DNA of 64,000 nt, taken from the NCBI GenBank assembly GCA_963922205.1, contig CAWUHX010000231.1, positions 540,798-604,797 of the forward strand. The letters run 5' to 3'. Every line of letters starts with the position of its first letter. Position 1 is the first letter of the stretch. The position numbers and the translations under genes were made by a program. This DNA is from Romanomermis culicivorax. Lineage: Eukaryota; Nematoda; Enoplea; Mermithida; Mermithidae. The notes beneath the pieces are model-generated. The model worked only from the letters and a program-made list of their open reading frames with translations, did not search any database and was not told the origin of the DNA. Shown here piece by piece: positions 24,391-29,725 of the stretch.

Positions 24391-27300
24391 TTACTGCTGC
24401 TGCCCGCCGCCTCGGTAGCCTCCTCGAGGTCTACCTTGATAGTACCCCCTCTGACCTGGTTGGCCTCGGGTTTGACCTCCATCCTGGCCTCTATTTTGGC
24501 CTTGTTGGCTTCCGCCGCGTCTACCTAGCGGAATAAAATTCGGATTATGAAATTCAGCATCCGGGTCTTGACCTTGGTGTTGCCAGGTTCCTCGGCCTCT
24601 GTAAGGTCGCTGAGGGCGCCCTCTGAAGCCTCCCCTGGGTTGACCTTGGTCATACCCCGGTCTAGCCCTGTACGGGGCCGGGTTTGAGAACATATCGTCT
24701 CTCCCCTGCTGCCTTTGACCACTGCTAGTGGAGCTGCTGCGCTGAGGTTTTTGTGTCCGATAAGTTGAATTAAGAGATTTTGATGATATTGATTTTGATC
24801 GAGAAAGCGGACTTTTGTAAGAAGTGCTAGCAGCTTCACTATATGACCTCTGGCTGGTCGTAGCCGATGATTGTTGTATCATCGGTGGTTGTTTCTTAGC
24901 CGGAGGGAGTCTAGGCACTTTGAACTTACTTGGGCTCTTGGCAGCCGTTCGCTGAAATTTATCAGCTTGCGACCTGTCATCGCCTGGTGCCTTCCTCTTA
25001 ACACCCATCTGGTTTAACCTTTGCGAGCCCATAAAAATATACTGATTAAAGGCTGCAATGTAGACATCGTCTACGCGGTTTCCCTGGGCCTCAACGACTA
25101 GTTGTCTGTTCGCAAACGAACACGCCTGGGCATACCACCTACCAATTGCCGTTGGCGTGATCGGAGCGAAGTCCAACTGAAGAAAAATCATTAGGGTCAC
25201 GTACCTAATGGCCGTAAAGACGTCTGAGGCATCGTAGTCCTGAAGCCATCTGGGGATGAGAATTAAAATTATCCATTCCCAGATCTCCTCAGGGATGCGC
25301 TCTCCGTCAAACATAAATCCGCCTTGCATTTCGAATTGCTGGCGGTAATTTTCGTGAATTTCGGCCATGGCATCATTGACCATTCTGTAAATTATCGGCC
25401 GTTCTTGCCGATCAAAGGCGAAGTAATTGGCGACCTCTGGATTTTCAAATGAGATCGGCCCAATTAGGCGCCTTTGTTCCCGTTGCCACTCCCAATAATC
25501 AATCAGAGTTTCGGCCAATTGACCAGGAGTGACAAACTGCTGTGGTTCCCTTTCGGGTCTAGTAGCTACCACATTCAGTTTGACCTTCTTGATCAATTTC
25601 TCCTCCGATTCAAGATCGGGCTTCACCAGTACGCTTCCCGCAGGTTTGCTACTTCTTGCGGTATAGCTGGAGGGCACGGATTTACTTTTGCCAGAATAAG
25701 TACTAACCTCTCCGCCGGTTTTCGATACCGTTCGCGTCTGAGTGTACGATGTTGTCGCAGTGGACCCTGTTGTCCTATCCGATTTTGTCTGGCCTATGGA
25801 GGTCTCCGTTCGCGTTTGACTTTTTGAAGTCTCCGTTCTCGTCTGACTCTTTGAAGTCTCCGATCTCGACTTTTGGCTCGTCGAGTATTGTGGTGTCGTC
25901 GTTTCTTCGGCCGTATCGTAGGCGTCGTTTTCGGATCCGGTGGCGGCCGCTCCTTGTTGCTGCTGTCCCTGAGCTGCAAGTCTGCGTCGCTTGGCCTTAC
26001 TTATCCTCTTCCTGCGCCTTACCTTTTCTTTGGCTAGGTGTCGGATAAATTTTTCCGACATCCCTTCAGCTAACATCTGCTGAACTTTGTCTGGGGAATA
26101 AATTCCAGGAATACCTTCCTCGGCAATTCTTCCCCTCCGCATCAGCTCTGTCGCTGCAATGGCTGAATCTGAGCTATCGTCGGCTAGTGCCTGCTCCTTC
26201 AGCTTTCTTTGGATTGCCCTCTGACGCAGGAATTCCTGCTGCGTCAGCCTTCTTTGTTCCTGAATTTTGGCCTGTAAGGCCTCTTGCTTCGCTTGACGGT
26301 CATGATCCTTAGGATCTTTGGCCTTCACAGGTATCTCCTGGGATGCTTCCTGCATCTTCTCCAGTCTGACATCGATCCCTGACATTTTGGTGACTGCTTC
26401 GTCAATTTGAGTCTGGATTTTTTCCTCCTCAAGAGCCTGTTTCTGAGTTTTGGCCTCCATCGCATCCTTATTCTCTGATGTCTGGCCCTCAGATTCGAGG
26501 ATTTCACCCTCTTCTTCTTCTTCTACATCCTCCTCTGAACTGGACTCAGAGTCTGAATTTCGTATCTTCGGCAAGAGCTGTTTTACTTTAGCTGGCAAAA
26601 CAGCTGGTGCTGGAGGTACTGATTGCATTATGGTGACAACCTCTGGCTCAGGCTCGGCCGGTTGTTGTACTTGAGGTACTTGAGTCGGCTGTGCCACCGC
26701 TGGTTGGATTGGCGGCGGCACCACGACAACTACTGCAGCTGCCTGCGTAGCAGCAGTGTCCAAAGCTGGTGTAGCTTTGACCACTGGCGCTAGCGCCTGC
26801 GGCTGCGCTTTGACCTGTCCCGTCCCTCCGGCTTGCGCCGTTTGGGAAGTTGAGGGACGATTTAGCGGTACTTTAGAAATTAACTCACCGGCTGGGGTAT
26901 ATGTAAGTGTATACCCGGGCATTTCCGAAGCGATTGTTCTCTCCCGGAAGCTTTTGCTGACAAACTCCGGTCTGAGCTCGAGCGGATTTCTCGGTGCGTA
27001 GGTAATCGGGTAGTCGGTTGGCGATGCGTCTTCCGTCATGGGATACCGCAGTCCCGGCGTTAAAGTCTCGAAGCCTACGTAGTAAAAAGTTACATAGAAA
27101 TAAGGATTTACCTTGTAGGCTCCGTCCTTCAATAACGATTTGTCGTCGCCAATTTGTAGAATCTCCTCGGCTTCTCGAAATCGTAGCGGGACAAAACCGA
27201 ACCGATTCTGCCATGCGTATACCCCTTTTTTAGATGGAAAGCGGGGTTCCGACGGCGGTAGCGTCGCTGCTAATTCTAAATAGTAAGCCAGGCGGTCGCC

Positions 27301-29725
27301 TGACTTCCAGGACATTTTCTTTATCATTTCCTGGCCTTCTTTAGTATAACTATTTAGAAAGTTATAGTTTAGCAGAGCGTTAGTTTCATAGTCGCACTCC
27401 GCTCTGGAATGAGGCCATGCCAAATGATAAGCCAATGGCATAAATTTGCAGATGACCTCTAACTCTGGGAAGTTTCGCTCATCCAGCATACCTGAAATTT
27501 TCGCCAAGTTTGGCGTGTAAAAATTGGTCTTATAGGCCTGTCTATGGCCCTCGATACCCACTGGGTAGTGGTTATTAGAGGAAAACACCTCTTGCGGAAT
27601 GGTATCGGGCTTCCCGGCTTGTTGCCAGTATAGCTTGGCGTTTTCGTACAACGTTAAAGAAATTTTCCCGTCTAAATCCCAGTAGGCTCCGCCTGACTTG
27701 AGATTTTCCAGGATATCTTTTGAAATATTTACCCAGTCTGGTATCTGGACGTCCTGGATTTCGTCGGGATCGCTATCTGTGGTGTATCCGTCGTCCTTCA
27801 ATGGTTTGTTATCTCTTGGAAGTAGTGGGTAGAAACCACTTGGCAACTGAACTCCCTGCGGACGGACTGGATTACACTCCGTGGGCGCGGTATAATAACC
27901 TGTGTTATTTCCCTGCATCTGTACCGCCCAACGGTTATACATCTCACACTTCATCATGTGATAGACCATGTTTGGTTGAACCTGATCGGTTTCCATAACT
28001 GGGGTACCTAGCCCCATTTCTCGATTCACATTGCCCGGAATCATTAGATATTGCTGATAAAAATGGAGGGCAATGGTGTTGATCTGTTTGGGATCCACCT
28101 TGTCATGGTCGAAAATCTGCATTTGCATAAGCAGTTGATCGGCCATGCCATAGTGAATGGCGGCAAACATGACCAATAAGGAGTAGTATGCGTCTAGAGC
28201 GGCGTATCTGAGCTCTTCCGGCAATATACCCCTTTTGGCAAACCGATCACGGTTCGCTTTTAACGAAAAGTCATATTGGTAGGGGCCCACGTCTATCAAA
28301 TAAAATTCCGTGAACAGTCCCTTTAACCGAAAAGTTTCGGGACATATACCTGTCTGAAAGCATTTTTTCTCCAGGTTCACTCCTACCATGGTGAGGGCGA
28401 AACGGTCTAAGTCAAAGTATCGACCTTTGGTCTTCCTTAGAAATTCCCGTAAGGGGACAGTTTTGTCCCTATCCTTATTCTCTCGCCCTGCGCCACAAAC
28501 GTTATAGATACTCACCAGATCTTCCAGCACGGCATATCCGGCGAACAGCATGTCGGAGTTCAAGAAGTCGTGGAGGCTGGTCCACTCTTTGATCATCATC
28601 GACGTTGTATCAATAACGTAAGTTTGACCGTTCGTTAGCGCGAAGCTGATATATCGGGCAAACTGCTTTCCCATTGGATTGTCGACCTCCCTTGTTTTGA
28701 ACAAGGCGGCGACCTTATCCTGGTTGACTTTTTCAACGTCGAAGCCACAAACTGGTTGTCCTCTGAAGATTGACACTTCTCGGATAAAATGGAGTACCTG
28801 GCTGACCTTCCCGATGTCTACCATTCGAGGTTCCTTGGGATTGGCCGGCCAGTACCCAAATGTGGCTTTGAACCACTGATCCAGTTCGTGGATTCGTACG
28901 GCCCGTTTGACGTTATAATCTAAACATAAAGTACTATTAATTTTAGTGTTTTATTCCCCTTTTTTCAGCGCATTTCTAGGGTCTATACTACACCAGCACC
29001 ACAACACCAAGCGGGTTAAGTTTCGCAGAAAATTAAGTTTAGTGCAGGTTGTTAGGTGAGCCACTGATATACAAACATTGAGCTGGTAGGCAACTAACAC
29101 CTTACCAAATCTTACCCTTGCTACCTCTATATGTTGGGGAGGGTAGACCTGATCCGATTGTCCACCACTTGATCGGACACCAATCTCTGACCAGCTGCTT
29201 GAGCGACCAACTACGCTCCATTTATGGCGCTGTATTTACAATTTTTATAGCGCTCGAAATTGATAATTTTTAATGAATTTGATATCGAAAAAGTGATATG
29301 ATTTGATTTGATTTGAAAATAAATAATTTTTGATAAATTTTTGAATGATAAAACTTAAAAACGGGCTGAACCCAAGGTTCTAGGTTTCCCTTGAATCGTA
29401 TAGCTCTCGGTGGTATCAGGTATATTTCCAAATTGGAAATTCCCTGCTTGGCTTCGAGCTTCCGCTTCGCAGTACTCCCATTTTTCGTTCCCTCTAAGTT
29501 CTAACCTCGTCTGCCCTTTGGGGCGCCGAGCTGGTCTTCCAGTGACTTCTGGGCATTACCTGCGGTTTCCAAGAAGTTTTGATAAAAATAAGTTCGAAAC
29601 TTACCGTCGATAAAGAAAAAACGGTTGTCTTGGCGGTGCTGGGCCCTGCCGTATTCAACGTGGCGCTCTGTGTGCGACCACTCGCGCGTCGGAGCTTGTT
29701 GGCGGTTCCGCGCGCCCTTTCCCAT
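24391..29725 (-). CDS. Retrotransposon third ORF: DEDDy exonuclease-like protein with RGG tail
   Basis: Two exons, 29725-29605 and 28919-24391 (GTAAGT donor, TTTAG acceptor), about 1549 aa. Residues about 90-300 carry the motif set of a DEDDy 3'-5' exonuclease (RNase D/WRN type): GFDVE (D101, E103), AGYAVLEDL (D174) and LPEELRYAALDAYY (Y279, D283), so all catalytic positions are present. Then come a region without known domain, an acidic run (about 830-848), a Gln/Glu-rich coiled coil (about 860-955), a basic patch RRRKRISKAKRRR (about 1005-1020), Ser/Thr repeats (SKSQTRTE), a helical segment (about 1165-1350) and a C-terminal RGG box. It sits where an envelope gene would be in some gypsy elements, but I see no signal peptide or membrane helix. 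It is long, open and in frame. Inferred role: a nucleic-acid exonuclease in particle, cDNA or small-RNA biology. Family assignment is by motif only. Confidence 0.8.
28920..29604 (-). other. Intron within the retrotransposon third ORF
   Basis: Starts GTAAGTTTCG and ends ATGTTTAG; AT-rich, with stops in the frames. Splicing joins the frame cleanly (phase 1) and adds 72 residues upstream of the first methionine of the large exon. Confidence 0.7.

What the first reader, a model, noticed from the sequence alone, without database searches (positions are those of the whole stretch)
24391..29725. Ty3/gypsy retrotransposon carrying a DEDDy 3'-5' exonuclease-like third ORF
Seen: a long uninterrupted ORF sits between integrase and the 3' LTR, in frame and on the same strand as gag and pol. 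Its N-terminal domain has GFDVE, VLEDL and RYAALDAYY in the right order and spacing, the DEDDy set of RNase D and WRN exonucleases. It ends in an RGG box. Known: Ty3/gypsy elements encode gag, protease, RT, RNase H and integrase, sometimes an envelope; a proofreading-type or RNA-trimming exonuclease is not a usual part. Inference: the element captured a host RNase D/MUT-7-like gene and may use it on its own cDNA, on tRNA primers, or against host small-RNA defence.
Basis: partly seen in the sequence, partly recalled or inferred. Interest (0 to 1): 0.88.

Follow-up and report, generated by a model that had tools for sequence, protein, structure and literature searches.

The report
Worm retrotransposon with exonuclease-like third gene
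A recently active jumping gene of a mosquito-killing nematode carries, besides its usual copying genes, a large third gene whose front part looks like an enzyme that trims the ends of RNA or DNA, and selection has kept it intact in nearly all the copies examined.

Summary
In the nematode Romanomermis culicivorax, a 14,676-bp minus-strand Ty3/gypsy-type element (LTRs 23019-23634, 37079-37694) carries a 1,519-codon open frame between integrase and 3' LTR; with a first exon starting at 29725, ORF3 would be 1,549 aa. It belongs to the element: 19 of 20 other copies fetched hold it full length without indels; 13 of 15 copies with both LTRs whole have 4-bp target duplications, 7 have identical LTRs. 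Purifying selection is strong (pN/pS 0.052 in 20 copies; in the same five copies pol 0.033, ORF3 0.055), and the DEDDy motif residues are invariant in 20 of 20. DEDDy ancestry is likely, not proven: PF01612 is the only Pfam match to the region (E 0.11, in one of four cuts, below cut-off); a MUT-7 homolog is the profile's best PDB match (E 0.48); a low-confidence model's seven best fold rows are Egalitarian or EXD2; the N-terminal half alone gives no profile signal. Rotifer LTR elements with DEDDy ORF3s were reported in 2017, so this is a new variant of a known kind; host, architecture and evidence of selection are new. Substrate unknown. This window's copy has a private frameshift in RT.

The parts
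37079..37694 (-). 5' LTR (616 nt, TG...CA)
   Evidence: 94% identical to the other LTR; 34 mismatches in 615 aligned bases, 2 gaps
23019..23634 (-). 3' LTR (616 nt, TG...CA); flanks of the two LTRs share no target duplication in this copy
33134..37063 (-). gag with RG-rich region, aspartic protease and start of RT (open frame; ATG at 36982)
   Evidence: PF13975 E 5e-10
30147..33203 (-). RT, RNase H, integrase (zinc-binding and core); separated from gag-PR by a frameshift inside RT
   Evidence: in the 44 other scored places the match starts only at residue 13 or 14, so none shares this break
29792..29799 (-). TTTTTCAG, candidate splice (or trans-splice) acceptor upstream of ORF3 exon 1
   Evidence: a run of T followed by CAG lies before exon 1 in 20 of 20 copies; use not shown
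29605..29725 (-). predicted ORF3 exon 1 (ATG; MGKGARN...FFFID), donor G|GTAAGTTT
   Evidence: gene models P0008 (joined as predicted) and P0016 (joined elsewhere) contain its counterpart (by eye)
24391..28919 (-). ORF3 exon 2 (acceptor TTTAG|AT), ends in stop; whole predicted protein 1,549 aa
28126..28824 (-). DEDDy exonuclease-like domain (frame residues 43-275)
28732..28746 (-). ExoI motif GFDVE
   Evidence: invariant in 20 of 20 copies
28516..28539 (-). ExoII motif GYAVLEDL
   Evidence: E143, D144 and L145 invariant in 20 of 20 copies
28192..28206 (-). ExoIII motif YAALD (YxxxD)
   Evidence: invariant in 20 of 20 copies
25981..26019 (-). basic stretch RRRKRISKAKRRR (NLS-like)
   Evidence: sequence only
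24406..24636 (-). RGG/RG-rich tail
37041..37078 (-). sequence after the 5' LTR where a primer-binding site is expected (AGTGGTGGC...); primer tRNA not identified
23635..24390 (-). 756-nt non-coding stretch between ORF3 stop and 3' LTR, present in the 19 other copies that hold ORF3

Best explanation
ORF3 is a genuine third gene of an active Ty3/gypsy-type retrotransposon. It is made from a spliced (or trans-spliced) subgenomic RNA as a ~1,549-aa RNA-binding protein with an N-terminal DEDDy-type 3'-5' exonuclease-like domain, a basic NLS-like stretch and an RGG tail. Shown: position, intactness, mobility as a unit, selection, invariant motif residues. Inferred: splicing, RNA binding, the DEDDy fold, and that the protein works inside the element's own RNA-protein complex, trimming 3' ends of element nucleic acid (genomic RNA, tRNA primer remnant or cDNA end) to make or protect a usable template.
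Against: No sequence match passes a curated or strict cut-off; hhalign's own probability is 1.7%, 11.7% for the C-terminal half. Three of four Pfam cuts gave nothing. Single-sequence PDB searches put unrelated chains first. The N-terminal half alone scores within the shuffles (22 of 120 at least as high). The model is poor (mean pLDDT 49.5), Foldseek has no match at E 0.001 or better, and the leading fold rows are many entries of only two proteins. In older fragments the last motif position is D in 3, E in 3 and N in 1 of 7 that cover it, and D71 is kept in 19 of 26. Expression, splicing and activity are untested.
Confidence: 0.5

Rival explanations
1. The exonuclease-like domain is a non-catalytic RNA-binding adaptor, as in Egalitarian or EXD1, and ORF3 is an RNA export or transport factor comparable in role to CERV of C. 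elegans Cer1.
For: The top fold row is Egalitarian, with EXD2 close behind. Cer1, another nematode gypsy element, has a third gene in the same place, made by splicing and needed for nuclear export of its genomic RNA (PMC10309623, passages). ORF3 has RGG and NLS-like stretches. E or N at the last motif position in 4 of 7 older fragments.
Against: All four acidic residues and the tyrosine are invariant in 20 of 20 young copies. That Egalitarian lacks activity is recalled; that EXD1 does is from a passage of PMC5408684.
Confidence: 0.25
2. ORF3 counters host small-RNA silencing by trimming or binding guide RNAs, in the manner of Nibbler or MUT-7.
For: Best PDB match of the profile is an exonuclease called mut-7 homolog. 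In nematodes outside clade V the Piwi protein was not found and RNA-dependent RNA polymerases control transposons in its absence (PMC4323106, abstract and passages; no passage on R. culicivorax itself was seen); R. culicivorax is clade I (PMC10879605, passages).
Against: No MUT7-C domain or other small-RNA factor domain found. No small-RNA data examined.
Confidence: 0.12
3. The DEDDy resemblance is chance or convergence; ORF3 is a lineage-specific structural or RNA-binding protein of another fold.
For: No strict match; N-terminal half without profile signal; poor model; single-sequence PDB searches put unrelated chains first.
Against: Ordered motifs in only 10 of 200,000 shuffles; Pfam, the profile search of the PDB and the fold comparison each put DEDDy proteins first.
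Confidence: 0.1
4. ORF3 is an envelope-like protein for cell-to-cell spread.
For: It sits where env genes sit.
Against: Highest mean 19-residue hydropathy is 1.50, just under the usual 1.6 (cut-off recalled), and exon 1 shows no hydrophobic run by eye.
Confidence: 0.03

Closest known systems
DEDDy ORF3 of bdelloid rotifer Juno and Vesta LTR retrotransposons and Athena/Terminon elements (Rodriguez et al. 2017, PMC5408684; abstract and passages seen)
   Same: LTR retrotransposon with an RNase D-like DEDDy ORF as third gene after pol
   Different: Other phylum. Rotifer motif changed to DEED in the paper; here DEDD in 20 of 20 copies. Three of four rotifer lineages carry a dUTPase; none found here by Pfam. 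The paper's test of variation, in the passage seen on env-like and GDSL-like ORF3s, found no departure from neutrality; a test on its DEDDy ORFs was not seen. Here pN/pS is 0.05. No rotifer protein came up as homologue at E up to 10, in a search limited to candidates sharing short exact words.
Cer1 with CERV, C. elegans (PMC10309623; passages seen)
   Same: Nematode gypsy element with a spliced third gene between pol and 3' LTR
   Different: CERV is 517 aa with H, M and G domains, G resembling G-proteins; the word exonuclease does not occur in that paper's main text
DEDDy exonucleases: RNase D, EXD2, EXD1, Egalitarian, MUT-7/Nibbler
   Same: Order and type of the ExoI-III motifs; best profile and fold matches
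   Different: Extra stretch of about 14 residues after ExoI relative to RNase D (relaxed alignment), very low identity, some 1,200 further residues without recognised domains

Membership tests
Ty3/gypsy LTR retrotransposons | LTRs flanking gag and pol with target duplication | tested here: met
   TG...CA LTRs; 4-bp duplication in 13 of 15 testable other copies, not in the window's copy
Ty3/gypsy LTR retrotransposons | pol order protease, RT, RNase H, integrase | tested here: met
Ty3/gypsy LTR retrotransposons | RT phylogenetic placement | not tested
   no reference RT set on hand
DEDDy 3'-5' exonucleases | four acidic residues in ExoI (DxE), ExoII (D), ExoIII (YxxxD) | tested here: met
   motif definition recalled and seen in the RNase D alignment
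DEDDy 3'-5' exonucleases | RNase H-like fold | tested here: inconclusive
DEDDy 3'-5' exonucleases | exonuclease activity | not testable with these tools
   needs protein
Pfam PF01612 | score above the curated cut-off (23.6 bits) | tested here: not met
   12.7 bits, E 0.11, in one of four cuts tried
MUT-7 family | MUT7-C domain behind the exonuclease domain | tested here: not met
   no Pfam match in the frame from residue 43 on at E up to 1, or in residues 11-680 at E up to 10; the domain's presence in most MUT-7 homologues is from an abstract in the listing
Retroviral envelope | membrane-spanning segment and signal peptide | tested here: inconclusive
   best 19-residue mean hydropathy 1.50, just under the usual cut-off; no dedicated predictor
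Rotifer DEDDy ORF3 family | sequence similarity closer than to cellular exonucleases | not testable with these tools
   rotifer sequences not on hand; none found

The most novel reading that the evidence does not exclude
An LTR retrotransposon depends on its own DEDDy 3'-5' exonuclease, under selection comparable to its pol, either as a 3'-end editing partner of its reverse transcriptase or as a nuclease against host small-RNA silencing.
Probability: 0.25. Interest if true: 0.85.

Novelty: new variant of a known kind. Interest (0 to 1): 0.62.

Why it matters
Exonuclease-like third genes were known from rotifer retroelements; whether they are needed was left open there. Here 20 young copies keep such a gene at pN/pS near 0.05, close to pol, and at least 80 places hold it as a long open frame. 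That says the element needs it, and makes the question of why a retrotransposon would carry a proofreading- or trimming-type nuclease testable in a genome with many recent insertions.

Tried and rejected
Single-sequence structure prediction failed (pLDDT 34.5). Whole-ORF protein search found nothing, probably because its length filter hides fragmentary relatives; the domain alone found 22 and the profile 52 (53 distinct). Viral-contig scans with ORF3 and pol gave no relative. NCBIfam and PHROGs gave no DEDDy hit. Single-sequence PDB searches gave unrelated top hits (4r1h, E 0.62 and 0.46). Hmmscan of 8 homologue fragments against Pfam gave nothing. Foldseek's best rows were unrelated (RSV F, E 0.77), with EXD2 sixth and Egalitarian seventh. 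The N-terminal half against RNase D was negative. The idea that ORF3's tail derives from gag: no BLAST similarity at E 1. A first motif pattern was discarded because it matched only 2 of 24 positives. A pol pN/pS of 0.81 came from sequences out of register and was replaced. Host DEDDy genes (PF01612 in the own genome) could not be searched: the tool did not complete that request. The RNase D comparison set is narrow: 12 of its 24 sequences are enterobacterial.

Selection caveats: the 20 other copies were taken from the best-scoring pol places (20 of the 44 other than the window's; one place ranked among them, on C23, was left out), which favours young copies; 19 of them entered the pN/pS count, the truncated one did not; pN and pS are uncorrected and copies share ancestry. 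The C258 copy had no 5' stretch to fetch (contig start).
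Full report
WHERE IT IS. Of 53 homologues of the exonuclease-like region found in about 5.8 billion proteins, 52 are named Romanomermis culicivorax and one name is cut off before the taxon. The window's genome has 359,112,060 bases in 595 contigs, the size and scaffold number given for the R. culicivorax v2 assembly (359.1 Mb, 595 scaffolds; PMC10879605, passages with Table 1 seen).

THE ELEMENT. On the minus strand, LTRs of 616 nt lie at 37079-37694 and 23019-23634, an element of 14,676 bp. 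The gag-PR frame (33134-37063) has an aspartic protease; the next (30147-33203) has RT, RNase H, and integrase zinc-binding and core domains in Ty3/gypsy order. The two frames meet inside RT. In 38 of 45 scored pol places gag-pol is one frame of at least 2,300 codons, one with an internal TAG; in the 44 places other than the window's the match starts only at residue 13 or 14 of the window's frame, so none shares its break, though six have shorter frames for other reasons. This copy also has LTRs with 34 mismatches in 615 bases and unlike flanks, which suggests recombination between copies. Its ORF3 is intact.

ORF3. The frame 24391-28950 has 1,519 codons. Most homologues that reach its start begin to match at residues 11-13 (P0036 and P0028 at 3 and 6), and the DNA there reads TTTAG|AT. 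Upstream, an ATG at 29725 opens a 121-nt exon ending G|GTAAGTTT, which joins in phase; gene model P0008 joins its counterpart as predicted, P0016 contains it joined elsewhere. In 20 of 20 copies ATG, donor, acceptor and an upstream T-run plus CAG are present; the joined reading phase is kept in 19 of 20, one copy having a 122-nt exon. The predicted protein is 1,549 aa. Splicing itself is not shown.

IS IT PART OF THE ELEMENT? Of 20 pol copies whose downstream DNA was fetched, 19 hold full-length ORF3 with no indel at 98.5-99.9% nucleotide identity; in one the match ends 257 bp after pol. The 3' LTR follows in 18 of these 19 and runs into N in the other. Of 18 copies whose 5' stretch was fetched, 15 have both LTRs whole; 13 of these have a 4-bp target duplication, all different, and 7 have identical LTRs; two of the 15 have no duplication, one of them with 68 LTR mismatches. 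ORF3 has therefore moved with the element repeatedly and recently. The association is older than this burst: 10 of 53 gene models of diverged copies join ORF3 pieces to gag or pol pieces at 67-88% amino-acid identity. Copy number is a lower bound: 31 of 31 scored places are full length, and a search with a diverged fragment scored 120 of 4,030 candidates, 80 of them in frames of at least 1,500 codons.

SELECTION. In 20 copies including the window's there is no internal stop; 219 variable codons are synonymous and 60 nonsynonymous; pN/pS is 0.052 for the whole frame, 0.048 for residues 43-275, and 0.040-0.069 for the other parts. In the same five copies pol gives 0.033 and ORF3 0.055. The copies were picked by pol score, which favours young copies, and are not independent, but selection on ORF3 is of the same order as on pol.

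OTHER PARTS. The rest has no recognised domain (weak matches to the C-terminal 419 residues at E 0.09 and 3.8 are below their cut-offs). There is a basic NLS-like stretch at 978-990, an RGG/RG tail at 1439-1515, and no segment above the usual hydropathy cut-off for a membrane span, the best reaching 1.50.

FUNCTION. Best supported, not shown: an RNA-binding 3'-end-processing protein of the element's own particle or nuclear RNA complex. The main rival is a non-catalytic adaptor for RNA export or transport, since Cer1 of C. elegans has a spliced third gene in the same place for nuclear export of its RNA (PMC10309623, passages). Older fragments vary at the last acidic residue (3 D, 3 E, 1 N of 7); many are probably decayed copies, so this is weak.

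KNOWN OR NEW. DEDDy ORF3s were described in bdelloid rotifer Juno and Vesta elements and in Athena elements (PMC5408684, abstract and passages). That paper's variation test, in the passage seen on env-like and GDSL-like ORF3s, found no departure from neutrality; a test of its DEDDy ORFs was not seen. PMC6338049 (passages) lists a DnaQ-like exonuclease among known accessory domains of LTR elements. The listings of my searches showed no report in nematodes (open-licence papers only). Hence a new variant of a known kind. PMC4323106 and PMC10879605 were seen in passages; other papers only in search listings.

Noticed in passing
window 47827-48900 (+): Open frame with RT C-terminal motifs (YVDDTF) and a GIY-YIG-like stretch (IVYQV...KVYIGETGRTLETRI), resembling a Penelope-like element fragment; Pfam gives RVT_1 at E 0.019 and an unlikely V_ATPase_I at 0.063. 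Naming is recalled.
   Followed up: partly
window 39730-41019 (-): Non-LTR-type reverse transcriptase frame of 429 codons (RVT_1 E 1.5e-30).
   Followed up: partly
window 39214-39530: Inverted repeat (67-nt arms, 87% complementary) made of GC-rich CGCGCGGTACCGCGCGG units; a related stretch lies at 54941-55191.
   Followed up: no
window 56958-57319: Palindrome of about 362 bp, 84% self-complementary, with related pieces at 7287-7472.
   Followed up: no
window 4968-5232, 12586-12839, 53351-53585, 57836-58102, 63312-63560: Dispersed repeat family of about 250 bp in both orientations, 68-89% identical, SINE- or MITE-like.
   Followed up: no
window 46529-47174: Array of about 104 copies of TATCTT, giving long open frames by chance in three frames.
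   Followed up: no
L095 (C404:187382-195800), after the 3' LTR: The 3' LTR is followed by AGTGGTGG, the sequence that normally follows a 5' LTR, suggesting a tandem copy sharing an LTR.
   Followed up: no
window 29506-29560 (-): Possible alternative exon (NAQKSLEDQLGAPKGRR) between ORF3 exons 1 and 2; a counterpart is used in gene model P0017.
   Followed up: no
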